Shown here: piece by piece, positions 6,350 through 23,274 of the stretch
How positions within the stretch are numbered: position 1 is the first letter of the stretch
How the letters are laid out: each line of letters opens with the position of its first letter
DNA from: Saccoglossus kowalevskii
Lineage: Eukaryota > Hemichordata > Enteropneusta > Harrimaniidae
Direction: 5' to 3'
Length of the DNA: 23,274 nucleotides
Assembly: GCF_000003605.2 (NCBI RefSeq)
Contig: NW_003137828.1
Location: 292,043-315,316 of the forward strand
Notes under the pieces: generated by a model
Seen by the model: the letters and a program-made list of their open reading frames with translations, nothing else
Database searches by the model: none
Told to the model about the DNA's origin: nothing
Made by a program: the position numbers and the translations under genes

Positions 6350-6528
6350 ATGGCAGCCATGGTGCAGAGTGGTGTGTTTCGTCGCTTAGTCCAAATAGCA
6401 CTGTGTTTTCTGTTTATTTCGATATCTCTTGTCAAACCTGACGACGAACAGAAATATGTTCTCGACGCTGAAATGTTTGCGAAGGCTGTGAAAGATAAGG
6501 CTCATTTCATCATGTTTTTCGCACCGTG
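6350..6528 (+). CDS. TXNDC5: TXNDC5 exon 1: signal peptide and start of thioredoxin domain 1
   Basis: This exon encodes residues 1-59 and two bases of the Trp60 codon (phase 2). The ATG at 6350 has A at -3 and G at +4. A second in-frame ATG at 6359 sits in GCAGCCATGG, an even better Kozak context, so either could start the protein. Both put [18 protein letters not shown] near the N-terminus as a signal peptide. The frame is also open upstream to an ATG at 6239, which would add 37 polar residues and bury the signal peptide; that start is unlikely and lies upstream of the proposed transcription start. The exon ends FFAPW, running into the CGHC in exon 2. The donor is GTAAGT. Confidence 0.9.
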
Positions 6529-9500
6529 GTAAGTAGAGTTACCTGTACGCCTACAGCTCTAGTAGTGCCTGGTATTTTGGTCTCCAAAAGTTTTTGTACA
6601 ACCAATATTTTGTCAACATTCCGTCTTTTATATTGTATTATCAACTACGTTGTTGTTTGATGCTAACGTGAAGAAATAATTTTTTTTCTGTTTGAAAAAT
6701 CTGGCCTTTTTAATACCTGCAGTTTTCTTGAAAACTGCTAGCACAGTCGACTTGAACGGTTGTTTTGTTAGGGCCAGGTACGGTGAATAGTCGAATGCAA
6801 CGTGGCATTCGAACATTGGTTGCTGGTTACTACAAGTTTCCATTTGTATTGAATACATAGTCATTTCAAAGTGTGGACATTTGTACTATACTAGAGTCAA
6901 CATTTAAATCGGTACCTCCTAATGGTTCAAACAACGTAATGGCAACATAATTGTCCTTGTTAGGTCTGGACGCTTTCGATTAACAGTGTCAAACTGTGTA
7001 TCGCCTATTCACTTCGAACAGTTGTTGAGAAAAATAAACATAAGCCCATTCTGTTTTGTATGTTTTCCAGTATTTTTAAATTGTATTTAAATTAATCCAA
7101 TCATTTAGCTTTGCCTTGTGCCGAGTTACATACCATATGGTAGGTTACATAGCTTTGTTAGAACTCCCTGATATTGTGGCATGTCTACTGCACAATTAAA
7201 TTTAACAGTCCTAATTTGGGTTTGTAGCTCACAAATAATATATAATGAAAAGAAAACATGATCACACACAAATGTGCATTTGGATGGATGGAGTTGCGTG
7301 TGAAGAGATTTAAATCCAGCATCGATGACTGCATTGTTATTGACCTTACCTGTAGTTTTCCAAAATACCAAAGTGCAAAAGATTATATTATAGTAATTTT
7401 GTTCTTCTTTGGTAGCTAACCTACTGTAAAATACTTTACTTTCGCTTGGAATTTATTTTCGCTATTTTCGCTGAAGGGATGATTCAGTGAAAATAGAATC
7501 CAGCGAATATATTTCACATTAAACTCATCAAAAATCAGTAAAAATAAATTCCATACAAAATGCCCAAAAAGCCCTTTCAGCGAGAATAAAGTATTCCACA
7601 GTATTTTAATAAAAAAAGGAAACAACATATTTTCAAAAAAGGCAGAGTGGTGGAGGAGGTAAGGAAAACTTGATATTTTTTCTAAATATCTTTGCAGAAA
7701 AAAAATCAAAACAATAAATAAAATTGATCCATGCTGATTATGCATGAACTAGTAGTTTTTGGTACAAATCTGCAAAATAAATAGCTAATTTGCTTACTAT
7801 GTAAATAATTGCAGAACTGTTTTAATCAATTTATTGTAATTGCTGATTATCGTAAAAGTGAAACTTTTCAGTTTTTAATTTGTTTATTTAGTAACGCTGA
7901 TTAGCCTATTCTGCACTATATTACATCCAATTCTTAGAACTCATTGTTTTACTATTACCGGGTAAATATATTCACAGTTGCTATGCACACAAATTAGTGA
8001 GAATGTTACATCAAGTCAATAGTGCACATTTTTAGTCTATAATTACTATAAGTTAATACTACCAGTACATGTATGAATTCAGATTTACATTCATTGCAAA
8101 TATTACTCATAAAATATTTTTCCTTATGATATATCAAAATTGTAGAAAAGTAGATTTATCCCTGTAGTGCAATAATACCTATAACACATTGAAAACTGCT
8201 GTACTAAAAAGGGTGTGGTTTATATTCTTATTTGGTAACTTGTACAAAGCTAAGAATAAATGACAATTATGTTTATCAAAACAAGTGGAAACATGCCTTT
8301 TAATATAACAGTTTTGAATACATGTGTTCCTGTGCCTTTTTACTGTATTACAAAGAGTGTGTGAATGGGTTCTTTTGGTCACCTACCTAAGCTTTGAATA
8401 AAACATTTTCAGTGAGTACTTTAACCAAGTAAAATTGAATATAAAAAAAAAAATAGTGAGACAGATTTCAACTCATGAAAACTGGAAATCCAGTTACATT
8501 TATGTTTTTAATGTTATGAACTAAAAACAATTGAAAGTAGTACTGTAAAAAAATTTATTTTAGCTGAAATTAATTTTCACTGAAAAAAATTTGTGGACAT
8601 TTTGTGTGGAATATATTTTCACTAATTTTTGGCAAGTTGAATGTAAAATATTGGAATAACTGTATATTCGCTGGATTTTATTTACACTGAATCATTCCTT
8701 CAGCAATAGTAGCGAAAATTAATTCCAAGCGAAAATAAAGTATTTTACACTATATATTTGTACCTGTGTGGTACATTGGCGTACAGAGGGTGTGAAGTTT
8801 TATAACTCTACTGACTGCTCATAGCATGTGCTATTATGTTGGGGGAGAAGTGCTCTATTCCATGGGATAACAAAAACTGCTTTTCTCGATACGCTTTAAA
8901 AAACAGTAAACTATTTTCACATGATTTCATTCCCTGTAAGATCTCTAATTGAGTTCTTTAATCTAATGAATAATTGTTATTCTTGGACTTTTTGAATACT
9001 TAGTGAAGCTTACTGAATTGTTATAATCCGACAGTATTATTGAGTTTCACTGCAACCATATTGGTGAATAGGAGCAATTAATATATTCAGTGGATGAGTA
9101 TTTCAGATTATGTAGTTATTAAAAATATGCTAACGTACGTCCAGCTTTGCTAAACCCTTGTTGGATTTACACAGCCTCGGGTTTTGTTAATAATCTGCAG
9201 TTCTTGCATGAAAATAAGTTCTCAAATTTTTATTTCTACATTTTTTTGTGCTAGGATTCTGGATCTTTCAAAACAAATTTTCTCTTTCAAAATTTTAGTC
9301 TAGTATTTTGCATATTTAAATTTATTGTTTAACAAGTTTTGTTAATTTTGAACCAAAAGTACATAATTTTGTAATTTTGTTACTATTCAGTAAGTATTGG
9401 TGTATATTGAGAAAATATGAAAAAAAAGCTATGCGAGATGTTTGTAAAATTTGACAAGTTGATTTTGCTTTTTAAATTAATAAACTTGTGTATTGCCCTA

Positions 9501-12500
9501 TCACATAGAATTTATGCTCTTTCTAGGCACGCTACTTCACAAGATATTCCAATTAATATGATTAAAAATCGACTTCAGCATAAAGTGCTTAACCATTCAA
9601 AAAATAAACCAGCATTTTTTCTAGAGAGAAATTATGTTTAAAATTAATGACGAAATTATAGAAATGTACATTAGAAAATTTGATGCAAAATTTTGCATCA
9701 AAATTCTGTGTTGAAAAAATGACATTAAAAACGATTACTTTTGTAACTCAACCTTGCATTCTTTCAATACATTCGCAATAAATTAAAAAAAATTGTATAC
9801 ACAAGGCCATGCAAAAATTATATTCATTTATTAATTATTATATCTCAATTTTTCATGTTTATTGTGTAGCCAGGTTTCAATTTCCCAGTCAATCATTATA
9901 GTGCAACTAATTTAAATATATAAATTGAATCAGAGATGGTGGTAATACATATGGTCGATTCTAATTACATTGTGTTATTAAGCCCTGCCTCCCTACCACA
10001 GACTTGCATAATTACAAGAGACGTATGTACATGTGCGTTTTAGGCATACATGTAGCTGCATTAATAACTGTTGTACAGTATGGAAACACATGGGTGTTTT
10101 TTGACCATATGGTGTACAAGATGAGCATTTCCTGAAGGCTTACCCCAAGGCACTATTTGGGTATTTCATTTCCAAATTATGCTAGTTTTGTTTCTGGTAG
10201 ATCACACCAAGTCTGACTAGTTTGATGATCAAGTAATATTTGACAATAATTAATTAAAAAAGCCTTTATAAAAAAAATAATTACATGTAAATAAAGTCAT
10301 CATAAAAAAAATAATGAATAGCTTGGTTTTCACTGTGTTCGCAGGACTGTGTTGATATTAATAACTGCACATTAATTCCGATTGATGAATGAAAAAAATG
10401 CAACAGCCAGTGTAGGTCATTTCTTGTATTCTATTCAAGGCTTGTTGACCAGTAAAATTATGAATATTAAAAACAAGTTTTACATTGGTCTCCAATTTAC
10501 CACAGTAATTATCAGGATAAAAAAAATTAGAAAAACAGTGTGAAATAATACACTGACGGGTAAATTGAGGGAAAATAATTCCCATTATCACGCCTTTGGC
10601 AGTTTAGTATTAAGCTGACCACCATATGGAGGAATCAGAATTATCTAAATCTGAATGAAGATCCGCTTAAATGACAGCCTCCAGTGTACTATATGCATGC
10701 CAAACGTGTACTGTCACAAAGATACTTGACAAAAATGAATAAATGCATTTAAAAAAAAAAATGCAAATGAAAATAGGGGGAGAATATCAACGCCATTTTG
10801 AATTTTTTAACGTACAATGTTTCTGCTTACTACCACCACATACTAGTATCTTATAAAAGAAATGATGCAGGTTAGTTGCGCCGCCACAGTTAAAATAGAG
10901 AAATGTTCAGCCAATCATATTGCTTCTTCTATCTAGGATAGGGAATTATATTTTGTTTTCCATGTATGATAGATCACTAGAATGCCCTCCTTACTCAGTT
11001 TCAGGTTGATTATGGTTAGGCTGAAAAAAATCAATATATTAGTAGTCAGAAATGGCTTTATTTTAGTTTTCTTCCTTTTTTTTGCCCCAATGGACCAACT
11101 TTTAACAAGTATTTTATATAACAGTCCTGTCTTTAATACAGATTTGAGATTATGAAAAAATTACCACCAATTGCAAGTTAGTCGTAACAGTTTTCTTACA
11201 GTGATGTTCCGGAAAACCACTACATCAAATTAAGTAAATGAACCAAAATTATTTCTGTGGATGGAGAATTTCCATGAAAATAAAATAGGCTTGCATGTAG
11301 CCATGGTGGATTATACTACATTGTTTTTTTTGGCCAATTATCAACCTGTTAAATCACTTGGAAAATGGGAAAAATTATTTTGCATTATGACATTTTCAGC
11401 TAGATTCGTGTACGCTTTTCAAAATAAAAATATGTATCTTCAATAATTTTTTCTAAATGTATTTGAAAATGGAAAAACTGTCTATTGAATAACATTGTTA
11501 GACTAGGCCCCCAGAGATGAGAGAACAAACATGTTTGATTTGTTGAACTAAAAACTTACTGGTAACTGCATTACAATATAAAAGAAAAGTGCATTTTTAA
11601 ATCAGAATTCAACGATCTGCATGCTAAAACTGAAATCATGTGTAAATATTGATACACAAATGTATTTTGTATGTTCACAAATACAACCATTTGTCCTTAC
11701 TATTGTTCCTGGATGAATACAGGAACCAGACAGGTGGTTAACAAGCAGTGGCATAGAAACCAAAGGAGGCATTCTGAATAAAACTCGTATTTATGATTTT
11801 TGAAATCAAAAATAGAATGAGGTCAAAAACAATTGCTGGTACATCTATATCAATACTATTTCATCCTAGTACAATAATAGAAAAATTCGCGTTTTCATGC
11901 ATATGTACTATTGTTGTCAATTACCAGTGAGGATTCTTGTGGCTGTTTTGAATGAAATTGAATTAACAATTAATGTTTTTATTGTGTTCCAGGTGCGGTC
12001 ATTGCAAACGACTACAGCCAACATGGAATGAACTTGCTGAAAAGTACAACAATAATGAAGATAGTGAAGTTAATTTGGGCAAGGTATGTACATGCACTTA
12101 ACAAAATCACCAAAACAGTTTACAATGCTGAAATGTCTTGACTGCGAGTGCCTATTTTTACAATAATGCCAGTTTCAAATGTTCAAACGATTAAAAGGAT
12201 GGTTTGAATCCAAATCTGATAGTACCCCATAAAATCTGTATTAGTAGCCACATCCCTAATAGAAGTCGCACCAATTTATTTTGAATAATAGAGAACCAAA
12301 GATTCATCATTATGTGTAGGTGCTCTAATAGAAGCCACATCCCCTCTATTGCATTGTACCATTTTAATAGAAGCCGCGGCTTCTAATACAGATTCTACAG
12401 TAGTTTATATGTTAGTACTTGTAAATTGCATAAACTCTATAATACTTTTACTGTTCTCTCAAGATTTTTCTGGCCAATGGCATTTCTGTTTGAGATCATA

Positions 12501-15500
12501 TACTTGTGCGGATTTCAATATGTGCATTCTTAGGCGTGTGTAATTATATCTCTTCTGTACATTTAGGTTGATTGCACAGTGGAAACTGCACTGTGTTCTG
12601 AATATGGAGTTACAGGCTATCCTACGTAAGTGTATTCTGTATTTATATTTATTTTCCCGCAGTGTGGCCGCTTACCCATTTGTGCGTCACTGATTAGCAG
12701 TACGCCGCTGGAATCGTACAGTTGCTGCACAACATTGATCTTGATATATGGTTCCCATGTTAAGTTTCCTTCCACTGTCTTCTTCTCTGGGCTAATCTGG
12801 TGATTGTGTGCCAGTTGTGCCCCATCTTTTTTATTTCCTGTTCCCATATTCTATGCCAGGTATTTCTTGGCCTTCCTCTATTTCTTTTCCCCTGTGGATT
12901 CCATTACAATGCTTTATTCAGTGTAGGACAAATCCAAGTCAATTCTCTTTTCTTCAGCTGATTTGTGTGAGGTAGCTATTTTGCTTGTTCCCAGAGCTTT
13001 GTTACTAGTCCCATTTGTGTTCCAAATTTAATAGACTCTTTGGTATTTAGGACATTCTACCGACCAGCTTCCTTGCGGCTTTTACTCGCCATCTTCATCT
13101 GAGGCCCCATTACTTTTAGTTTTTGTTCTGAATTCGGCAGTCTGTTTTTCTGTAATCCAAGTTATCCACTTAGTGGGGGATTAGCCTACCAAGCGTCACA
13201 AGAGCCCTGTTAGTCAGCATTAACTGTTTACACCTTCCACGATGATGATGTAGGGTTAGGGTTATGATATTCTTTGAGGTATGGTTTCCATGTTGCGTAT
13301 AGCATGTGTACAAATTTCATGCATAGGTTACAGCATTTTAGTAGAAGTTCATGCTTTTGAGTACAGGTGGTTGCTCAAGACCCTTAACTGCAAAGATGTG
13401 TAGATATCTATCTTATTATCCCTTAGCATATTGCTGGTTGGGGATATATTGGTTAGCAGCGTCTGTTTGTGTGTATGTATGTCCAGAGTTGTATCAGTAC
13501 TATTGCAGATATAAATATTCAGTGTTGTATTTAAGACATTGCACCCTAGAACGTATTTAATCACCATGTGGTCATGTGACCTCATTAAAAATGTATACCA
13601 TATCTGTAGCAAATAGACTTAACCAGAGCAATTTTGAAGACACATGATCTAATCAACATATTTAATGACCATATATGGTCTTGTGACCTCAATGAAAATG
13701 CATGTGCCTAATATGGATACCATAATATGAATAGTTGATTGTAATTTTTACAATTGCCAATGAATTTTCATCAAACTTTAGTAGATTAGAATGTAAAGTA
13801 CCAACGCTTATCTAATAATATTTTTGGACCTACTGTCTGTTACCTAAACGACAAGTCTTATGTGTACTTCCTGCAATACATGTACTTGTTGGTAGAACCA
13901 GGTCGGTTGTGGTAATTTAATTTATAAACTCAAATCTTGCACAGTGTGTTAAATTCTACACTGTATTCCTCACTATAATAATTTACCAAACTGCCTCCTT
14001 TTTTTCCCCCCATGTTTTGATTTTTTAAATTATAGGGTGGATTTATTGGTGTTGACAATAACTTGTTTTTTTTTATAATATGCCATCTGACTTGTTTAAA
14101 AATCTGCATAGAAATTGCAAAAATTTAAAAAAACATTTCTGTTAATCCTTAGAATCAGTAAAGTGTTAATAATTTGTGTGTGCATATATATAGAAGTTGG
14201 TGTTAGCTCCAGGTTGATTACATTTATTTCAACTAGAAATTAGAAGTACACATTTTTCACAAAAATGTACATTTTTGTACAGCATAACTTTCGCAGTGTC
14301 CTTTGTGCAATGCATGTACACTACACATTATTTGCATCTTGTTTTGTATATAAATAAACCTGTGTAAAAAAACTATATACAAATAGTGAAATCACCAGAT
14401 ATACTGGTATATTTTATGCTAGCAATATTCTAACTGTAGAGGGCGCTAATCACTCCTATAAAGGATTGTATCCTCGGGCAAAGCTATGTCATAAGAATTT
14501 CCAAGTTGCTAAGTCGCACACCACTGTACCACGTATTCCTATGGGCTCTGAGCGTGCTGCTAAGGAACCTCAAGCGATGATCCGGTGAAAATTTGAGAAA
14601 ACAGGAACTCAACTTTGAAGTAATCCTGAACAATCAAATCGATGTGCGTTACACACACAGGGCTAATCTTGTTCAGGGGAGTCTCAACAATGTATTCCAA
14701 AGTACCGTTTTCTGAGAGTTTTCGGCTTTTGTTTCCACCGTGATGGTTGCCATGCGCTGAAAATGCCCGGATGTCCGCCCCCAAGAATTGTATTGTTCCT
14801 CAATCCTTTCCCTTGATACAAAAAGTAAATAAATACATTTTTTTTATTCACTCGGTTATAATTTTGCTATTTTATCTAATAAATAATATCAGCAAAACTA
14901 AATACATGTGAATGCTAAGTGAGTATTTTTAAGTTAGCATTAAAAATCAAGTTAATTGAATTAATAAATAAGAATCTAAAAATCAATAAGATTGTGGGCA
15001 AGTCTAACAATAATGCTGACAGACATTACTTACTATACTGTCCATTCTACCTGGTTGTTCACATCTGTCAAAACATTGCTTTTTGAGACTTGTAAGATTG
15101 TAAAGTACAAACTAGATGAATGCTTTGTGGTTAGAATTTGTACTGCTCACTTAAAATTACATACAACAGTGCCTGACACAGTGCACATTCATTTCAGACT
15201 GCGAGGGCTCACTGCACTGCACTGCTAGTGCACCTATATATACCTTGTACTGCCTGTGAACCTACAGATACTGTGTTCTGTTTAAGGCACATTGTATGGT
15301 AACTGCTTTGGGACATGCACCAAATAATTTAGTTTACCAAAAATCATTTTCTAGATGTTACATATTAGCTACTTGTGATGGAATTTACCTACTTACGGAT
15401 TCCCTGCTAAAACAGGCTGTTGCTCTAGAAAGTATCCTGTATCATGATCAAGTTCAGATCAGTTGTTGAATTTCCTTTGAGACTTGAAATGGGATTTGCA

Positions 15501-18500
15501 TAGTTTGTCAGGTATACAGTTTAGGTTCATCTACACCAGCGGTTATATATTAAAAATGAACAGAGCAGCCTCAACAAATTTCCATTCTACTAAAAACGAT
15601 TTTATTTAAAAAAAAAAAACCTTGGAGTATTTGTAGTTTTTTTTTTTCTATCCAATCATAGACAAAAATAACAGAAAATGAAAAAAAAACACATCCAAGA
15701 CGAGAAAATGGTTTGGTCAGAGTGTAAATATGTGCGTCAAATGAGGTCAATTTCAGGGCATGGACCGAGAGCATCCGCAGAACCCAGAAAGTAGTTTGCG
15801 CATGCGTATATTCCGCTTCATTATTACAACCAACTGCTCTGCCATACTACTGTCAGATTATCAATTATGTTTCAGTGGGAGGGTTTTGGGAAAAAACCTA
15901 AAAGAATTAAGTTTTTTATCAGACATCGATCTTTTGATGTCGTCCCTTAGTATAGTTGTACATAAAAGACTTTATCTGCCTGGGCCATTTTATCAAAATC
16001 AGTCAGTCCTGGAATCGTATTATAAATATATTTTTTTTTGTCTGATATAGATTAAAGTTTTTTAGACCAGGTGAAGAGGCGGTAAAATACCAGGGCAAGC
16101 GTGATGCAGAAACATTGGAGAAATTCATGAAAGAAACTTTGGATCCTTCTACTAAGGTGCGTGTGTTGGAATTCAAACAAGAGGATGACGCGATGTATAG
16201 CTATGCAATTCGATGCAGATTTAATTTGATTTAACCTAGTATTTACCCTGTTGTGTATATTCAGTGTTGGTCATTTGCTTTACTTCCTATAATAGCATCT
16301 AATAGAGCTAGCGTATCTTAATGGCTGTTATTGAACCTCGTCTAGTCTAGTGGTACAATAAGTGTAAAAGGAGAAAATATTGAGTGTGCTTAATTTAACT
16401 TGATATGACTTTGCATGGGTATCGGCTGGCTGCATTGTTATGAATTAAAACTATATGAATGGCCTTTGTGCCACCCATTTGTCACAGAAGCATAAAGTTT
16501 GATGTACAGAAAATGTGCATTATTTACTGAAGTTATAAATTGCAGAATAGTCCGTTATAATATCTTTCAATTTGCTACTGAATCTGAAAAATCTTTCTTT
16601 CATTCTGTTCGTCTTCGTGTGTTTTCTCAAGTAGCCAATATTTGATAATTGGTCAAGAAACCCAACCATATTTTTCACTGTGTCTAAAATGTATTTGCAT
16701 TGTTTATTGTTGGTCTTTAGGAAGAACCTGAGGTGGCAGCCACTGGACCACCAGAAGCTAAAGATGGTTTATACGAGTTGAACGCTGGTAACTTTGACAA
16801 ACATGTAGCAAAAGGTAGCCACTTTGTAAAATTTTATGCTCCTTGGTGTGGTCACTGTAAACGTCTTGCTCCAACCTGGGAGGAACTTGCAAAAGACTCA
16901 GACGGCAAAGTGACTATCAATAAGGTAAGTCTAATTGACAATTCAGAATACCTGCCCAAGTCATAGATGAAAGGATAGGTATATGCATTGGAAAAATGTT
17001 AGTGATTTTACATTCGCGAGCACGTCTTTTTCACGAATTTAGCGAGAGAACTAATTCGCTAATTCAAGATGTCGCTAATGACTTTATTATCAATTCAAAA
17101 TGGCCGCCAAACAAAGAAATAAACAATGACAAGAAAGATTCGCTAAATCAACATTTCGCTATTACGTCACTTTACCACAATTCGCTAAAATTGCATGCTG
17201 CTTTTTCAACATGTTTTACAGTATTTTTTTCTTTCTTGTTACTCAACAAATTTATCCAATCTTATTCAAACTCTGATTCAATAATTAAACTTCAGTTGTT
17301 TTGTGACTAATGTTTACTTTTTAAAGCAATAAATATAGATATTATTACTACTAGGTAATATTGGGTTCCATATTTTTGTAATTTTAGTACTCAGATATTT
17401 TATTTAAATAGTGGTAAATGTTTTTTTTGTTTATACTTGATGTCCACTCAAATAGTTATCCCTTCTCACAGTACAGTCCTAGACCAACTTTTTTGGGAAT
17501 ACTATCCAAAAACATGGGTTAGATTAGTAGTAGTGTTTTGGAGGCCAACTTTGGGTATTTAAACAATAACTGGAAATTATGAAATTTTCATCTTGGAAAT
17601 GTTATTATGCAACAGAAAAGTGTGTTTCTGTCATTGTTTAGACCAAATTGTTTCTCACAAGGTTGATGTTCCCAGTTTTGGTGGCAGACCTACTTCAATT
17701 TTTTGTTTGTTTACTGTACTGAATTCCCAATGTAATTTCCATTATATTTAACCATTTTTTTCCTCCCAGATTTTGCCTGGTTTTATGTATTTTAAATTTT
17801 GGACGAAATGTACATAATTTCCTATCCTCGGGGGCGGAGCTACGTCACAGACGTTCCACGTTGCTAAGACGCGCACCACTGTAACATGCATTTCTATGGG
17901 CTCTTTGTGCGCTGCTGTGGAACGCCGGTCGAGCCGGTGAAAATTTGAGAAAACAACACAAACTCAACTTTGAAGTAATCCTGAACAACCAAATTTATAT
18001 ATGTTACACTCGTAGGGCTAATCTTGTTACACTGTTCAGAGGAGTCTCAACAACCATCCCCAAGTATCGTTTTCTGCCAGTTTTGGGCCTTTGTTTTCAC
18101 CGCCGCGGGTTGCCAGGCGGTGAAAATGCCCGGATGTCCGCCCCGAGGATTGCTACAGATCTTTATCAAAATTTGATAAAAATCTGGAAACAGTTTTGGA
18201 TTTATTTTGTGACCAAAGTTTATCTCTTAGAGAAATGAACCAGATTTTGTTATGAATGCATTTCCAGATTGATTGCACTTCTGAGAAACCGGTGTGCGAT
18301 AAATTTGAGGTAAGAGGATACCCAACACTTCTTTTCATCAAAGATGGTCAAAAAATAGAGAAATATGGTGGAGCTCGTGATTTGGATGCTTTGAAATCAT
18401 ATGTTGAGAAAATGCAGGCATCTGGTAAAGAAGCACCTAAGCCTGAAAAGGTTAAGAAGGTAGAGGAAAAACAAGAGGTAAAAAAAGATGAAGACAAACC

Positions 18501-21220
18501 ATCAAAGGTAAATTACTTGTATCAAAGCCAGTAATATATTTACCCCTAATGACAATGTTAACAGTAGGTTGAATATCAGCGCAAATTAAATTCATATGGC
18601 TAACTTGCAAGCTAACTTGAAAATCCAATGTTCTAATAACCCAATCAAGTTCTCCGACATGGTTGAAGCAACTGAGATTTGTATGTGTAATTTAAAACTT
18701 ACTTTGTATAGTCACAATAATGTTGTACTCTAAAAACAGACAACTTAGCCATAGTACATGCATAAACAAAAATTAAATAGTATAAAATGAAGTGGCACCA
18801 TAGAATGCAAGATTGCCACAAAATATAGCAAATCGTTTTTGTAGCAGATCATTTGATAGCGCCAATAAGTCTCCGTACGAATCTTGTTTGTGTGCACTGT
18901 AAACCAAACTATTGAATACAGCGACAATCTATAACATCATCAGGTGGAATAATATGCACATTATCTAAATTATATTTAACTAATTTGGTGTTGCAACAAT
19001 ACAGCTAATCCCCTTTTAATGTTTATATTTGTGAATGATCATTCGGTATATTCTGTTTTATAGGTTGTAACGCTTGGTGAAGATTCTTTTGAAACTGGTA
19101 TAGGAACCGGCCTTACCTTTGTCAAATTCTTTGCACCATGGTAAGTTATTGTCTGGCTGAAGGTAATGCTTCATTCACTGGGCTAATTCCTCTTACTATT
19201 TATAATACTTTGATCTTGGTTCAACTCTTGTGTTAATTTTGTGTAGATAAACATGTACCCAAAAAATCTGTATTGGCTGTAACCTTGAAATAAAGAGGTA
19301 GACTTGACTTGTTGCAAAAAAACGAAGAACATTATATATGAAGCACCCTTCTATAATATTTACATAAAAAAATATATTCAGTCGTGCTGCAAATTATTAA
19401 TTGCGTCATTAACCGTTTTACTCCATTTTCGCGTATTCTTGTGATCACGTGACTTGGTATTTACATAATTTAAAAAAATTGCCATATTTTCAAAGTTTGA
19501 AAAAAGATCTTTATTATGGTATATAACATGTATGGGTAAAATGTATGTTTCAGTCTGTAAATTGAGGCCAAAAAATTGAACCAGCGAACGTATGCTAACC
19601 CCTTAAATAACCCATTAGGTTTACATACTAGTAGTTAATGTTCTATAATCAGGAAGATATTGCGATGGACCTGTAAATGAAATAATTAAACTGGTCCTTG
19701 TTGATTAGCTTTACAGAATTTCAGACTACTAGAATTGAGGGATTTTGCTGACATAATGAAAGTGTCAGTGTCAACAAGTTATAAAAAATTAACTGAAATT
19801 TGTAGGTAGATTGGCCATTATAAATAATCTAGAAACAAAATGAGATTAACTCGATCCTTTTAATATTGCTCCTTACAATTAGCATGTTCTGTTTATAGGT
19901 GCGACGATTGTGATCGTCTTGCTCCAACATGGGAAGAATTAGCTGAGAAAATTGCAAATAACTTACGATTAGCATGTTTTGTTTATAGGTGTGGCCATTG
20001 TAAACGTCTTGCTCCAACATGGGAAGAATTAGCTGAGAAAGTTGCAAGTAAACCCAATATCAAGATTGCTAAAGTTGATTGCACTGTAGATAAAGATGTA
20101 TGCAAAAAAGCAGAGGTAATGTGGATTTGTTTAAAGCATTGGACAGTAGTTTGTGAGTTCTGGTGCACAAGGCAGTGAATATTCTGTATAGTATGTGCTC
20201 CATATAGGTGATTTTCCGTACAATTGTGAGATCTCACGAGATGCATGAAAGACGCGCGTCGAACGTCTGCCGCAAAAATCGAACGATTTGATTTTGAACT
20301 CTAATTTCCTTATTTCGTAGCTCACACTGACCGGCCGATCTTCGACAGAGGAATACTGCTTCCGAATACCCTTACTTAATCGAAATTGCCTATCATCAAA
20401 TGTGGACAGCACATTATTAAGCATGGAAATGTCATTGGCTGCCATGTTCAACATTTGTTTGTTGCATAGCATTAGTTAGTACCAATAGTAATGGTCAAAA
20501 CAAGCTTCACTAACCATACTGAGCGTGTATGTAACTAAAGTGATATCAATGCAAATAAAATAAAATAAAGCACAAACATTTCATTTTTTGTGATCATGTG
20601 CATAGCATAACATTCTTAGTAAAGCTTTTTCAATTTCCATCAATTACGAACGTGCAGAGCATGATTGACGATATGTTCCAAAAAAAAGTGTTTTTATTTT
20701 ATTCCGTGTGTCCATCTCAATATAATCAGATAACTACATCTGCCCAATTATGCAAAACATGTTTAGGTCTTGTATGACCTAAAATAAATCAGATTGCACA
20801 TCACAGAAGAGCTGTCTGAACATAATTTGCATAGTTGAGTGTTATAAGAGGTGTGGTACATCCAGAATTAAAATGAGCCGCTGCTTAAAACACAAAAATC
20901 AACTTTTCATGCATTTTACAAAATAAAAGCTGCACAATTCTTTGCTTGTTCCCTTTCAAAAATGTTAATCGAAATGTAGAAAATGGAAAATCTACCCATG
21001 TTACATCAAAAATGTTACATCAAAAATGTTACATCAAAAGGTTGCTTGGAAAAATTGTCATTGCATGTAATAACTGATCTGTTTATTTCTATTCCAGGTT
21101 CGTGGATATCCAACACTAATTCTTTATAGCAATGGAAAGAAAGTAGATGATTATAACAAGGCAAGAGAATTGGATGCCCTGTACAAATACATTACAGAGC
21201 GCCCCCATGATGAGTTGTAA
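6350..21220 (+). CDS. TXNDC5: TXNDC5/ERp46-like protein disulfide isomerase, nine coding exons
   Basis: This is a spliced gene for an ER-lumen thiol-disulfide oxidoreductase with three thioredoxin domains. The exons are 6350-6528, 11993-12083, 12567-12625, 16051-16156, 16721-16924, 18268-18507, 19064-19140, 19989-20115 and 21098-21220. Their lengths sum to 1206 nt, which is 401 codons plus TAA, and every junction is GT-AG and frame-consistent (phases 2,0,2,0,0,0,2,0). Residues 1-30 or so form a signal peptide with two Arg followed by a hydrophobic [13 protein letters not shown] core. The three active sites CGHC are at residues 61-64, 188-191 and 320-323, with GYPT cis-proline loops at about 107-110, 230-233 and 364-367. 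A Lys/Glu/Pro-rich linker covers about 264-293, and HDEL ends the protein. Three Trx domains, the signal peptide and the retention signal match the TXNDC5 family in order and in length (the human protein is about 430 residues). By family, it introduces disulfides into secretory proteins, with PRDX4 as a known oxidising partner. An alternative acceptor in exon 8 would give 431 residues. Family assignment is very secure; splice choice in exon 8 is not. Confidence 0.95.
7422..7603 (+). mobile_element. MITE-like element, family 1, copy 1
   Basis: This 182-bp AT-rich element starts TACTGTAAAATACTTTACTT, and its far end, read in reverse complement, starts TACTGTGGAATACTTTATTC. These are terminal inverted repeats of about 25 bp with TA at the outer edges, the target preferred by Tc1/mariner-type elements. 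A diverged copy lies 1 kb downstream in the opposite orientation. It has no coding capacity. Confidence 0.7.
8541..8752 (-). mobile_element. MITE-like element, family 1, copy 2 (inverted)
   Basis: Read on the - strand this 212-bp segment follows copy 1 closely in its first ~90 nt (for example TTTCGCTTGGAATT and ATGATTCAGTG, then ATCCAGCGAATATA) and more loosely after that. It is about 30 bp longer than copy 1. It ends TACTGTAAAAAAATTTATTT on the + strand side, preserving the terminal TACTGT. Confidence 0.7.
9679..9702. repeat. 24-bp perfect palindrome in intron 1
   Basis: The core TGATGCAAAATTTTGCATCA (9681-9700) is perfectly self-complementary, and two further T/A pairs extend it to 24 bp. 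It has no spacer, so it could form a cruciform. It is not obviously the end of any element. Confidence 0.9.
11993..12083 (+). CDS. TXNDC5: TXNDC5 exon 2: first CGHC active site
   Basis: The acceptor TTCCAG is at 11987-11992. The first base completes the Trp60 codon, so the junction reads [17 protein letters not shown]. Catalytic cysteines are Cys61 and Cys64, and CKRLQPTW is the usual helix after a PDI-type active site. The exon codes for residues 61-90 and ends phase 0 at ...NLGK with donor GTATGT. Confidence 0.95.
12084..12566 (+). other. TXNDC5 intron 2 (483 bp)
   Basis: The donor is GTATGT and the acceptor ATTTAG, phase 0 between NLGK and VDCT. Its middle is occupied by the MITE-like element at about 12221-12403. 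Confidence 0.9.
12221..12403. mobile_element. MITE-like element, family 3, with internal AGAAGCC repeats
   Basis: AATCTGTATTAGTAGCC at 12233-12249 is the inverse of GGCTTCTAATACAGATT at 12378-12394 with one mismatch, giving inverted repeats about 150 bp apart. The motif TAATAGAAGYCRC recurs at about 12257, 12324 and 12365. The last copy runs into the perfect 18-bp palindrome TAGAAGCCGCGGCTTCTA (12368-12385). The outer right end reads TACTGTAG in reverse complement. The exact outer borders are uncertain. Confidence 0.55.
12567..12625 (+). CDS. TXNDC5: TXNDC5 exon 3: Trx1 VDCT strand and start of the cis-Pro loop
   Basis: This 59-nt exon lies between ATTTAG and GTAAGT. It reads [20 protein letters not shown], the conserved VDCT strand, the second cysteine pair typical of TXNDC5 domains, and the cis-Pro (Pro109) of GYPT. 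The Thr110 codon is split (phase 2) with exon 4. An antisense LINE remnant begins within a few tens of bases of the donor. Confidence 0.92.
12650..13060 (-). mobile_element. LINE ORF2 C-terminal remnant, antisense in intron 3
   Basis: Read on the - strand, 12838-12903 gives [18 protein letters not shown] and then IWEQ, the W-PQGKR-RGRP-TW signature near the C-terminus of many non-LTR retrotransposon ORF2 proteins. Downstream in the same frame comes [18 protein letters not shown], the RLAQ-R-RW block that usually follows. Upstream lies LWEQ and a basic KKRELTW block, as expected. In-frame stops (for example TAA just before WNPQ, and after QWKET) show it is dead. The 3' end of the element points at exon 3 and nearly reaches its donor. 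Borders are approximate; the clade is not assigned. Confidence 0.75.
14471..14786 (+). mobile_element. MITE-like element, family 2, copy A
   Basis: This 316-bp element matches 17825-18149 along its length, for example GGTGAAAATTTGAGAAAACA, TCAACTTTGAAGTAATCCTG and GAAAATGCCCGGATGTCCGC in both. It starts TCCTCGGG and ends CCCCCAAGA (inverse TCTTGGGGG). The hexamer ATTGTA directly flanks both sides (14465-14470 and 14787-14792), a likely target-site duplication. It has no coding capacity of note. Confidence 0.75.
16051..16156 (+). CDS. TXNDC5: TXNDC5 exon 4: C-terminal part of Trx1
   Basis: The acceptor is GATATAG and the donor is GTGCGT. After completing Thr110 the exon reads [20 protein letters not shown], the last strands of the fold and the GxRD turn seen in TXNDC5 domains. 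The terminal helix [15 protein letters not shown] follows. It ends phase 0 at residue 145, exactly at the border between domains 1 and 2. Confidence 0.93.
16157..16720 (+). other. TXNDC5 intron 4 (564 bp)
   Basis: The donor is GTGCGT and the acceptor TCTTTAG, phase 0 at the Trx1/Trx2 border. I see no repeat, RNA gene or further exon in it. Confidence 0.9.
16721..16924 (+). CDS. TXNDC5: TXNDC5 exon 5: linker and second CGHC active site
   Basis: The 204-nt exon follows TCTTTAG and precedes GTAAGT. It encodes residues 146-213: a short acidic linker ([16 protein letters not shown]), then a full first half of Trx domain 2 including [19 protein letters not shown], with Cys188 and Cys191. In this domain the active-site Trp codon is not split by an intron, unlike domains 1 and 3. 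An ATG inside the exon at 16733 makes the open frame look like a separate short ORF, but it is part of this exon. Confidence 0.95.
16999..17226. repeat. TTCGCTAA-rich repeat-like stretch, possible transposon remnant
   Basis: The hexamer TCGCTA or its inverse TAGCGA recurs at least six times in about 150 nt (near 17040, 17055, 17072, 17140, 17156 and 17182), in a stretch richer in CpG than the intron around it. It ends TTTTACAGTA, like the outer TACTGTAAAA of family 1, and shares the TTCGCT vocabulary with it. No convincing left inverted repeat was found, so its nature is open. Confidence 0.35.
17825..18149 (+). mobile_element. MITE-like element, family 2, copy B
   Basis: This 325-bp element starts TCCTCGGGGGCGGA and ends TCCGCCCCGAGGA, near-perfect terminal inverted repeats of about 13 bp. 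The flanks TTCCTA (17819-17824) and TTGCTA (18150-18155) differ at one base and may be a decayed 6-bp target duplication. It is in the same orientation as copy A, and its better inverted repeats define the family ends. Confidence 0.78.
18268..18507 (+). CDS. TXNDC5: TXNDC5 exon 6: second half of Trx2 and charged linker
   Basis: The acceptor is TTTCCAG and the donor is GTAAAT. The exon encodes residues 214-293. It begins [20 protein letters not shown] with cis-Pro232, then [20 protein letters not shown] and the terminal helix. From about residue 264 it turns into a low-complexity Lys/Glu/Pro linker (for example [20 protein letters not shown]) that separates domain 2 from domain 3. It ends phase 0 at the domain border. 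Confidence 0.94.
18508..19063 (+). other. TXNDC5 intron 6 (556 bp)
   Basis: The donor is GTAAAT and the acceptor TTTATAG, phase 0 at the Trx2/Trx3 border. I see nothing else in it. Confidence 0.9.
19064..19140 (+). CDS. TXNDC5: TXNDC5 exon 7: start of thioredoxin domain 3
   Basis: The acceptor is TTTATAG and the donor GTAAGT. The exon reads [20 protein letters not shown] then KFFAP and two bases of the Trp319 codon. This phase-2 split just before the active site is the same position as the exon 1/2 junction of domain 1. In frame it can join either of two exon 8 acceptors, 19899 or 19989. Confidence 0.93.
19141..19988 (+). other. TXNDC5 intron 7 (848 bp, or 758 bp if the upstream acceptor is used)
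   Basis: Phase 2 in the active-site Trp codon of domain 3, matching intron 1 in domain 1. Its 3' end is duplicated, giving two equivalent acceptors at 19898 and 19988. The rest holds no recognisable feature. Confidence 0.88.
19872..20051 (+). repeat. 90-bp direct tandem duplication spanning intron 7 end and exon 8 start
   Basis: Unit 1 is 19872-19961 and unit 2 is 19962-20051, aligned without gaps and differing at 9 of 90 positions. Each unit opens with CTTAC, a match to the metazoan branch-site consensus yUnAy, 23 nt before its own TTTATAG acceptor, followed by 63 nt of coding sequence. The duplication thus copies a whole 3' splice module plus the active-site helix, and its length is a multiple of three. 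Confidence 0.95.
19899..19988 (+). CDS. TXNDC5: Alternative in-frame 5' extension of TXNDC5 exon 8 with CDDC active site
   Basis: If the upstream acceptor (TTTATAG, 19892-19898) is used, 90 nt are added without changing frame and without a stop, lengthening the protein from 401 to 431 residues. The added 30 residues begin [20 protein letters not shown] and end in a translated copy of the intron end (ACFVYR) before the normal CGHC. Compared with the downstream copy, Gly, His and Lys of the active-site loop CGHCK are all replaced by Asp, while the next 11 codons are identical. This could be an alternatively spliced segment, the constitutive form, or a decaying duplicate that is skipped; the sequence alone cannot decide. 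Confidence 0.5.
19989..20115 (+). CDS. TXNDC5: TXNDC5 exon 8 (short form): third CGHC active site
   Basis: With the acceptor TTTATAG at 19982-19988 the exon completes Trp319 and reads [20 protein letters not shown], giving a standard domain 3 with Cys320 and Cys323. It goes on with [18 protein letters not shown] and ends phase 0 at GTAATG. This form gives a normal-length domain and is the conservative choice. A 90-bp duplicate lies directly upstream and keeps the frame open, so the exon may instead begin at 19899. Confidence 0.9.
20131..20472 (-). other. Unrecognised 113-codon antisense open frame in intron 8
   Basis: This is the longest open frame in the window that the TXNDC5 exons do not explain. 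The first Met is at 20472, and a Met with good context (AACATGGCAGCC, reading MAAND) is at 20445. The translation is mixed in composition, not low-complexity (for example [20 protein letters not shown]), but I recognise no family. A GTGAGA donor-like site on the - strand within the palindrome at 20226-20237 would allow it to be a first coding exon of an antisense gene. Chance is the simpler explanation. Confidence 0.2.
20998..21039 (+). repeat. Three tandem copies of a 14-bp unit
   Basis: ATGTTACATCAAAA is repeated at 20998, 21012 and 21026 without change. The array ends 58 bp before exon 9, just upstream of the region expected to hold the branch site and pyrimidine tract. Confidence 0.95.
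21098..21220 (+). CDS. TXNDC5: TXNDC5 exon 9: end of Trx3, HDEL and stop
   Basis: The acceptor is TATTCCAG. The exon reads [20 protein letters not shown], then [16 protein letters not shown] and HDEL before TAA. GYPT supplies the cis-Pro (Pro366) of domain 3, and HDEL is a KDEL-receptor retrieval signal that places the mature protein in the ER lumen. Confidence 0.95.
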   Translation, partial: VRGYPTLILYSNGKKVDDYNKARELDALYKYITERPHDEL

Positions 21221-21722
21221 TTCATCACCTTCAATATTTTAATTTTCTGTTAAACAGATTTCTTTTAATATTTTTTTTTTTTAATACAATTGTTTAACTC
21301 CCAAATTTTGTAGCTTTTTGCTTTGTTTCGTTATTTCTTCAAAAAGGTATAGATTGTTTTTTCAAGTAATACTGAGTCAAAACTGTTGATACTAAATAAG
21401 TAAACTTGTGATATGTCATAAACATGGTATATATTTATGTCAAACCACTTATTTTCCTAGCTGTTTTTTAGACTGCATGTGTACAGCCACATTTTTATAT
21501 CATGTCATTCAGTTTTCTCAGTATTACATGAACAAGGATGAAACAAATGCAACTCTGCGTTACTGTTATTTCTTGTTGCGACTGTTGAAATGTTTTTTTT
21601 TTTGTTTAATCTCTATTTTTAGTATAATTTGCTTTAGAAACTGAATTACCATAGAAAACCCTGAAAAGAAGCCAAATGTGTACTTTTTAAAATCAAGTTT
21701 AAAATACATTTGCTTTTTCTTA

Positions 21723-22330
21723 GCACTAGCCAAATCGAAATATTATTTGAAAACAAGTAGCGCTGAAGTGTTTTCATTTGAACATTACCCACATTGAAAT
21801 TCTCATTTTAACACCTTGCCTTCTAAAGTCTCCACCAACGCGATATAAACTGTTTCATCTTGGCACTAACCAAATAGAATTATTTGAAAACAAGTAGCGC
21901 TGAAGTGTTTTCATTTGAACATTACCCACATTGAAATTCTCATTTTAACACCTTGCCTTCTAAAGTCTCCACCAACGCGATATAAACTGTTTCATCTTGG
22001 CACTAACCAAATAGAATTATTATTTGAAAACAAGTAGCGCTGAAGTGTTTTCATTTGAACAATACCCACATTGAAATTCTCATTTTAACACCTTGCCTTC
22101 TAAAGTCTCCACCAACGTGATATAAACTGTTTCATCTTGGCACTAACCAAATAGAATTATTTGAAAACAAGTAGCGCTGAAGTGTTTTCATTTGAACAAT
22201 ACCCACATTGAAATGTTCTCGTTTTAACACCTTACTTTCTGAAAGCCTCCACAGACTAACCAGTTGGTGAAAAGTTAGCAGGCAATGTGCACTAGTAAGA
22301 TCACAGCAGTATGATATAAACTGTTAAAAA
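21723..22330 (+). repeat. Tandem array of four ~139-bp units downstream of TXNDC5
   Basis: Units begin GCACTARCCAAAT at 21723, 21863, 22000 and 22140 (periods 140, 137, 140). The first three are nearly identical; the fourth diverges after about 22215 and ends, after an insertion of about 60 bp, at GATATAAACTGTT. Each unit contains the imperfect dyad GAAAACA-N4-AGCGCT-N4... TGTTTTC (27 bp; first copy at 21749-21775). No coding frame is conserved. Confidence 0.93.
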
Positions 22331-22639: not shown

Positions 22640-23274
22640 TCCTGTCTGCATTGTCGAAAAAGTACTTGCCACAGACATTAACGCTACTTTTTAAGTCCTT
22701 TCTAAGAGAAAGCAAAATTCCTGATGGCTGGAAAGAGGGTGTTGTAAAACCAATCCACAAAAAGGGTGATACAAAAGACCTCAACAACTACAGAGGTATC
22801 ACTCTAAATTCCCGTTTCAAAAATTTACAGTAAGGTTATTGAAACAAAGTTAAGAAAATTTGTTGAAGAAAATAACATTCTGGGAGAAATTCAAGGAGGT
22901 TTTAGGGAAGATAGATGTGAGGATCATGTGTTTACACTCAAAGGTATAGCGTCCTTAAGGAAATAAAGAAATCTACTTGTGTAGCATTTCTTGATTTCTC
23001 GAAAGCATTTGATAGAGTTTGGAGGGATGGTTTGCGAGAAAGCAGGAATACAAGGACAATTATGGAATATTATAGATGACATGTATGAGAATGTTTTTAA
23101 TAAGGTCAATTTTAATGATATTGAGACTGAATACTTTGAAACCAGTGAAGGTGTAAAACAAGGATGCGTTTTAAGCCCCGTACTCTTCTCAATTTATATA
23201 AATGAATTTGCAAAAATGTTATTTGAATCAAAACTAGGGGTGAGGATAGGAACACAAATAATTCCAGGACTTTT
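22640..23274 (+). mobile_element. LINE-type reverse transcriptase fragment, frameshifted, runs off the window
   Basis: Non-LTR retrotransposon reverse transcriptase motifs appear in the right order: IPDGWKEGVVKPIHKKGD (22717-22770) and NNYRGITL, then QGGFREDR, the catalytic motif FLDFSKAFDRVW (22987-23022) and EGVKQGCVLSP (23147-23179). The coding frame changes at about 22820, 22965 and 23035, with stops at 22831 and 22964, so the copy is dead. Both the 5' part (endonuclease) and the YADD box are outside the window or lost. It is on the same strand as TXNDC5. The clade is not assigned. It is a different fragment from the antisense remnant in intron 3, and the two do not overlap in protein region. 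Confidence 0.88.

What the first reader, a model, noticed from the sequence alone, without database searches (positions are those of the whole stretch)
19872..20051. In-frame 90-bp duplication creates a second 3' splice module and a CDDC active site in TXNDC5
The two units each carry a CTTAC branch-site candidate, a TTTATAG acceptor 23 nt later, and the coding start of the third active site. The length is 90, so both acceptors keep frame and the upstream one gives no stop. Differences are not spread evenly in the coding part: 11 codons after the active site are identical, while CGHCK becomes CDDCD in the upstream unit, three residues all changed to Asp. Use of the first acceptor would insert 30 residues and a second active-site helix into Trx3, with the CGHC then preceded by VYR instead of APW. 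This may be a NAGNAG-like but domain-scale alternative-acceptor device that switches a PDI domain between redox-competent and altered forms, or a recent duplicate in decay.
Basis: partly seen in the sequence, partly recalled or inferred. Interest (0 to 1): 0.88.

Follow-up and report, generated by a model that had tools for sequence, protein, structure and literature searches.

The report
Partial exon duplication in acorn-worm TXNDC5
In an acorn-worm gene for a disulfide-bond enzyme, 90 bases spanning the start of one exon were copied in tandem; the downstream copy still encodes the normal active site, and the upstream copy looks like a neutral leftover that might sometimes add 30 amino acids, so this is a neat but ordinary duplication.

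Summary
Two 90-nt units lie head to tail at 19872-19961 and 19962-20051, 81 of 90 bases identical. Each carries CTTAC, TTTATAG|G and the first 63 nt of exon 8 of a TXNDC5 gene modelled with nine exons and 401 residues ending in HDEL. Both acceptors keep frame; the upstream one would insert 30 residues. The genome is Saccoglossus kowalevskii by its COX1, and the whole unit is found once in it.

I found no support for a redox switch. The downstream copy has the canonical CGHCK. Of 205 homologues listed by two searches, 200 have C[G/S/P]HC[K/Q/M/R/L] in the last Trx domain; none has Asp at the changed positions of a CxxC there, and none an insertion of 10 or more residues at the active site. Copy differences fit neutrality: 6 nonsynonymous, 1 synonymous, P=0.57; clustering P about 0.07. 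Two-copy tandem arrays are not rare nearby. A published potato gene has similar anatomy (PMC4974935).

Most likely this is a non-adaptive partial tandem duplication whose upstream half is drifting. Whether acceptor 1 is used cannot be told without RNA.

The parts
6350..6528 (+). TXNDC5 exon 1 (start codon, hydrophobic N-terminus, start of Trx1)
   Evidence: spliced model
11993..12083 (+). TXNDC5 exon 2 (Trx1 CGHC), phase-2 acceptor like that of exon 8
12567..12625 (+). TXNDC5 exon 3
16051..16156 (+). TXNDC5 exon 4; its modelled donor AAG|GTGCGT resembles the GTGCGA that follows acceptor 1
16721..16924 (+). TXNDC5 exon 5 (Trx2 CGHC)
18268..18507 (+). TXNDC5 exon 6 (end of Trx2, linker)
19064..19140 (+). 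TXNDC5 exon 7 (start of Trx3, ends ...FFAPW with the split codon TG|G)
19872..19961 (+). upstream copy of the 90-nt unit: 27 nt intron tail, acceptor 1 (AG at 19897-19898), 63 nt exon-like sequence with CDDCD
19899..19988 (+). the 90 nt (30 codons) that would be added to the mRNA if acceptor 1 is used; also a possible 90-nt GT...AG intron
   Evidence: the intron reading is inferred
19903..19918 (+). perfect 6-bp inverted repeat GACGAT-TGTG-ATCGTC made by differences of the upstream copy; predicted RNA hairpin just after acceptor 1
19962..20051 (+). downstream copy of the unit, with acceptor 2 (AG at 19987-19988) and the canonical CGHCK
19989..20115 (+). TXNDC5 exon 8 as in homologues (Trx3 CGHC helix and what follows)
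21098..21219 (+). TXNDC5 exon 9 (end of Trx3, HDEL); these coordinates include the first two bases of the TAA stop

Best explanation
A replication or repair error duplicated, in tandem, 90 bp spanning the last 27 nt of intron 7 and the first 63 nt of exon 8 of TXNDC5 in Saccoglossus kowalevskii. Shown: the duplication, two acceptors with intact motifs, the frame, one locus in the assembly. Inferred: normal mRNA is made from acceptor 2, which keeps Trx3 functional; the upstream copy lies mostly in intron, is free of protein-level constraint and has drifted (CGHCK to CDDCD). Some transcripts may use acceptor 1 and carry 30 extra residues that duplicate the active-site helix and probably disturb Trx3. 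Such leakage is tolerable because it neither shifts frame nor truncates, and because Trx1 and Trx2 remain.
For: Structure of the repeat. One full match of the unit in the 572 Mb assembly; the 6 matches to Trx3 on contig C2922 all lie in this gene, and the other 7 of 13 lie on other contigs and are at most 49% identical. The downstream copy keeps CGHCK; in the last Trx domain of 205 homologues 200 read C[G/S/P]HC[K/Q/M/R/L], so the Asp changes are derived in the upstream copy. Copy differences fit neutrality: 6 nonsynonymous against 1 synonymous, P(syn<=1)=0.57, and intron and exon parts differ alike (2/27 against 7/63, P=0.72). Clustering not significant. Two-copy tandem arrays of period 40-300 are not rare: 3 distinct ones (4 rows) in 20 stretches holding 147,541 non-N bases of the same contig. 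Similar anatomy published for a potato RdRp gene (PMC4974935, passages).
Against: Acceptor 1 is intact, and its -50 to -24 region is more pyrimidine-rich (19/27) than that of acceptor 2 (11/27), so sequence alone does not favour acceptor 2. About 10% divergence without a stop or a lost AG is compatible with drift but also with use. An open 30-codon insert is somewhat unlikely by chance (7.6% or less). No RNA was available, so no splice junction, not even 19140-19989, has been observed.
Confidence: 0.74

Rival explanations
1. Both acceptors are used appreciably and the 30-residue insert is a standing protein variant of Trx3, without regulation or a selected function. (This overlaps with the best explanation, which allows leaky use; the odds are not exclusive.)
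For: Both acceptors have identical core motifs and equal pyrimidine counts (12/20 each, the 20 nt before the last three); frame is open through the insert.
Against: No such insert in 205 homologues, which does not exclude a lineage-specific one; loss of Gly and His inside the inserted CxxC and a duplicated helix should disturb the fold (inference).
Confidence: 0.35
2. A regulated alternative-acceptor device switches Trx3 between redox-competent and altered forms, with selection having made CDDCD.
For: Three changes to the same residue in one motif; frame and stop-free tail kept.
Against: Neutrality not rejected, clustering P about 0.07, no homologue with the insert or with Asp in a last-domain CxxC, no RNA.
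Confidence: 0.05
3. The upstream unit is removed as a nascent 90-nt intron or by recursive splicing: exon 7 joins acceptor 1 with a zero-length exon, recreating a donor (ATG|GTGCGA), which then splices to acceptor 2. [quoted passage not shown]
For: Acceptor 1 reads ATAG|GTGCGA; a GTGCGT donor is modelled for exon 4 of this gene. The AGGT model and a duplication across an intron-exon boundary are both published (PMC4974935, PMC2891723, passages).
Against: GTGCGA after ATG is a weak donor by recalled consensus; the mRNA would equal that from direct use of acceptor 2, so no sequence evidence distinguishes them.
Confidence: 0.1
4. The Asp cluster is a mutational by-product: the differences turn the active-site codons into a perfect 6-bp inverted repeat, as in quasi-palindrome correction or template switching. 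(This concerns how the changes arose and can hold together with the best explanation.)
For: Best inverted repeat 6 bp in copy 1 against 2 bp in copy 2; chance 0.026 (same positions) or 0.007 (random positions); 31-nt hairpin region -9.3 against -2.2 kcal/mol, 7 of 200 shuffles as good. Template switching is reported to cause clustered amino-acid replacements in yeast (PMC8604942, abstract) and RNA hairpins (PMC8794818, abstract and opening text).
Against: No single template switch explains more than 2 of the 9 differences, no more than in any of 2000 random controls, so several events would be needed. The folding energy alone has chance 0.04-0.08, and the whole 90-nt copy folds no better than shuffles (z -1.06, 23 of 200). 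The pattern was noticed after the fact.
Confidence: 0.15
5. Assembly artefact or merged haplotypes.
For: Raw reads could not be inspected; the assembly is in 4830 contigs.
Against: Two copies 10% apart, in register and without indels, are not what a collapsed haplotype or a repeated consensus usually gives (inference); no second locus.
Confidence: 0.04

Closest known systems
Potato RdRp gene PGSC0003DMG402000361 (PMC4974935; passages read)
   Different: There a new intron was detected, its GTAAG donor activated from a cryptic site recruited from the upstream exon. Here the only candidate that I noted is the weak AG|GTGCGA, and no transcript is available.
AGGT or proto-splice-site tandem-duplication intron gain (Rogers 1989 as cited in PMC4974935; Drosophila cases in PMC2891723, passages read)
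   Same: A duplicated AG|GT motif brackets a stretch as long as the duplication (90 nt).
   Different: The classical case is within an exon; here the AG is an existing acceptor, so a splice at both sites would leave a zero-length exon.
NAGNAG tandem acceptors (recalled; mentioned in PMC2891723)
   Same: Two in-frame alternative acceptors at one intron end.
   Different: 90 nt apart, each with its own branch-site candidate, produced by duplication, use unproven.
TXNDC5/ERp46 (PDB 8eky chain M)
   Same: Trx domains with CGHC and an ER-retention-type tail.
   Different: The 90-nt duplication at the exon 8 acceptor.

Membership tests
TXNDC5 (ERp46) | three thioredoxin domains, each with CGHC | tested here: met
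   The spliced 401-residue model reads APWCGHC three times; Pfam PF00085 gives two stretches in the Trx2-Trx3 part; Trx1 was not scanned
TXNDC5 (ERp46) | closest relatives are TXNDC5 proteins | tested here: met
   Best PDB match 8eky chain M, TXNDC5, E 9.9e-112, for the Trx2-Trx3 part; the top hits that bear an informative name are mostly TXNDC5
TXNDC5 (ERp46) | signal peptide and C-terminal KDEL-like tail | tested here: inconclusive
   The model ends HDEL and begins with a hydrophobic stretch; no signal-peptide predictor was run
Functional alternative tandem acceptor | both acceptors intact and in frame | tested here: met
Functional alternative tandem acceptor | transcripts from both acceptors | not testable with these tools
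   No protein labelled S. kowalevskii among the 120 hits listed in each; no read data
Functional alternative tandem acceptor | insert conserved or constrained between species | tested here: not met
   No insertion of 10 or more residues at the active site of the last Trx in 205 homologues; the same script finds the 30-residue insert in the window's own insert form. No hemichordate TXNDC5 was recognised in hand, so this speaks only to more distant relatives
Intron gain by tandem duplication | duplicated AG|GT with branch-site candidate and pyrimidine tract | tested here: met
Intron gain by tandem duplication | the duplicated stretch is spliced out as an intron of its own | not testable with these tools
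   needs RNA

The most novel reading that the evidence does not exclude
A 90-bp duplication has turned an ordinary acceptor into a two-state 3' splice module in a PDI-family gene: use of acceptor 1 adds a second, Asp-rich CxxC helix to Trx3 (redox-altered), or acceptor 1 acts as a ratchet point for recursive splicing of a newborn 90-nt intron, with the hairpin behind acceptor 1 setting the ratio.
Probability: 0.06. Interest if true: 0.6.

Novelty: new member of a known kind. Interest (0 to 1): 0.24.

Why it matters
It is a natural case of an acceptor caught not long after tandem duplication, in a conserved enzyme, with both splice outcomes in frame. One RNA-seq junction count would show whether such duplicates start as silent intron, protein variation or intron gain. 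It does not, on present evidence, show a new redox switch.

Tried and rejected
Second haplotype or paralogue of the unit: no other full match in the assembly. Insert in other species: two protein searches; the 205 distinct proteins they list (of 6624 and 1422 significant ones) were checked for close CxxC pairs and for insertions in the last Trx. Five proteins had two CxxC motifs 10-60 residues apart; in each the first motif starts within the first 22 residues, so it is not in Trx3. P0320 has CDYC in its first domain. My first insertion and residue census was flawed: it cut each protein 30 residues before a motif that already required H, Y or F, so it could neither see this insert nor judge His; one search replaces it, with the window's insert form as positive control (30 residues found). 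In one search, 63 the exceptions in the last domain are P0103 (SGHCK), P0251 (CGHSK), P0249, P0250 and P0323 (no CxxC aligned; P0249 has Asp at the fifth position of a site without cysteines); P0290 has a 10-residue insertion near its C terminus, away from the active site; P0005 ends in a repeated half domain. Single template switch for the Asp cluster: not supported. Clustering of differences: not significant. Intron phase was coded wrongly (its stop-free fraction only); one search is the corrected version and the only one used. The 200 kb sample contains 52,459 N, and its two-copy count uses a cut-off of fewer than 2.6 copies (one 153-bp row with 2.6 copies falls just outside). Literature listings; no paper on this duplication was noticed in the titles and abstracts listed, which is not proof of absence.

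Full report
What is there. The window holds a TXNDC5 gene on the + strand, modelled with nine exons: 6350-6528, 11993-12083, 12567-12625, 16051-16156, 16721-16924, 18268-18507, 19064-19140, 19989-20115, 21098-21219; the eight introns are all GT-AG and the protein has 401 residues ending in HDEL. The model rests on reading frames and splice motifs, not on RNA. The best solved relative of its Trx2-Trx3 part is TXNDC5 (8eky chain M, E 9.9e-112). At the intron 7/exon 8 border a 90-nt unit occurs twice in tandem, 19872-19961 and 19962-20051, without indels, 81 of 90 bases identical. The unit contains 27 nt of intron end and 63 nt of exon start, so the acceptor is duplicated. Using acceptor 1 (exon start 19899) adds 30 in-frame residues, [30 protein letters not shown], before the normal CGHCK.

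Whose genome. The assembly has 572,110,611 bases in 4830 contigs. Its COX1 lies on a 17,037-base contig. The best match of that COX1 is COX1 of Saccoglossus kowalevskii, 98% with the invertebrate mitochondrial code, on a record of the same 17,037 bases; read with table 24 the two agree at all 516 residues compared. The organism is therefore S. kowalevskii or something extremely close. The 90-nt unit has no other full match in the assembly; the only other hit is 41 bases in exon 5 (Trx2) of the same gene. A protein search with the insert form gave 13 matches: 6 exonic ones in this gene and 7 weaker ones on other contigs.

Is it more than chance? The tandem duplication certainly is. Its reported subtleties are not striking. 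The 36-nt identical run has P=0.075 and five differences in 13 nt P=0.065. In the 20 full codons of the exon part there are 6 nonsynonymous and 1 synonymous differences over 47.8 and 12.2 sites, P=0.57 for so few synonymous ones under neutrality. Intron and exon parts differ alike (2/27, 7/63; P=0.72). One third of duplications keep frame. The intron tail is open for 12 codons upstream of acceptor 1; of six other acceptors of the gene in the same test one (11993) is open for nine codons and the rest for eight or fewer; duplications simulated over seven acceptors, this one included, are in frame and open in 7.6%. That is uncommon but not remarkable, and selection against frameshifting cases would enrich for it.

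Which copy is the working one? In the last Trx domain of 205 homologues (the distinct proteins among the 120 best listed by each of two searches), 200 read C[G/S/P]HC[K/Q/M/R/L]; two have one cysteine changed to serine, and three show no CxxC there, one of which has Asp at the fifth position. Asp at the second, third or fifth position of a last-domain CxxC is not seen; one protein has CDYC in its first domain. None carries an insertion of 10 or more residues at the active site; the only one of that size lies near a C terminus. The downstream copy is thus canonical and the changes of G, H and K to D belong to the upstream copy. The I/V and N/S differences cannot be polarised, because those columns vary widely. 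The nearest protein found, P0001 (57% identity, unnamed metagenome source), has an ordinary Trx3. No hemichordate TXNDC5 was recognised in the listings, so a clade-specific insert cannot be excluded.

How common are such duplications here? In 20 stretches of the same contig (200,000 bases, of which 52,459 read N) Tandem Repeats Finder gave 17 rows with period 40-300, of which 4 rows (3 distinct arrays) have fewer than 2.6 copies. At that rate, about one per 50 kb, an assembly of this size would hold on the order of ten thousand, and by my rough estimate, assuming an acceptor about every 3 kb (not measured), one to two hundred would cover an acceptor. A case like this one is thus expected somewhere without adaptation. 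The window itself has two more arrays nearby, 20998-21039 and 21718-22252.

Splicing. Both acceptors share CTTAC, the same 12/20 pyrimidines just upstream, and TTTATAG|G; further upstream acceptor 1 is richer in pyrimidines (19/27 against 11/27). Sequence alone therefore does not say that acceptor 1 is silent, and I give appreciable use about one in three. [quoted passage not shown] Exon 4 of this gene is modelled with the donor AAG|GTGCGT, so the motif is not absurd, but GTGCGA after ATG is weak (recalled consensus).

The Asp cluster. The differences make a perfect inverted repeat GACGAT-TGTG-ATCGTC (best arm 6 bp against 2 bp in the other copy), chance 0.007 to 0.026, and an RNA hairpin of -9.3 against -2.2 kcal/mol. 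For the energy alone chance is 0.04 to 0.08, and the whole 90-nt copy does not fold unusually well (23 of 200 shuffles as good). Inverted-repeat template switching is a reported source of clustered amino-acid changes (PMC8604942, abstract) and of RNA hairpins (PMC8794818, abstract and opening text). But no single template switch explains more than two of the nine differences, which every one of 2000 random controls reaches too. I keep this as a minor rival.

Comparison with the literature. [quoted passage not shown] Drosophila cases of intron gain attributed to tandem duplication are in PMC2891723 (passages). The finding is a new example of a known kind of event. I noticed nothing about this gene's duplication in the listings.

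Verdict.

Noticed in passing
window 21718-22252: Tandem array of a 137-bp unit, 3.8 copies, 94% matches, downstream of TXNDC5.
   Followed up: no
window 20998-21039: Three perfect copies of ATGTTACATCAAAA about 60 nt before the exon 9 acceptor.
   Followed up: no
window 22985-23272: Reverse-transcriptase fragment (PF00078, E 6e-7); upstream frames looked RT-like to me but two of them gave no Pfam match. Probably a broken retrotransposon next to the gene.
   Followed up: partly
P0005 (Aplysia californica TXNDC5 homolog): After ...ENHDEL the protein runs on as LISSHLILPSR into a second copy of the CGHC helix and the rest of the domain; PSR|CGHC resembles VYR|CGHC here and may be a read-through of a duplicated acceptor in that gene model.
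   Followed up: no
window 6350-21219: No protein labelled S. kowalevskii is among the 120 hits listed by either TXNDC5 search, although the species' COX1 is in the database; the gene may be missing or misannotated there.
   Followed up: partly
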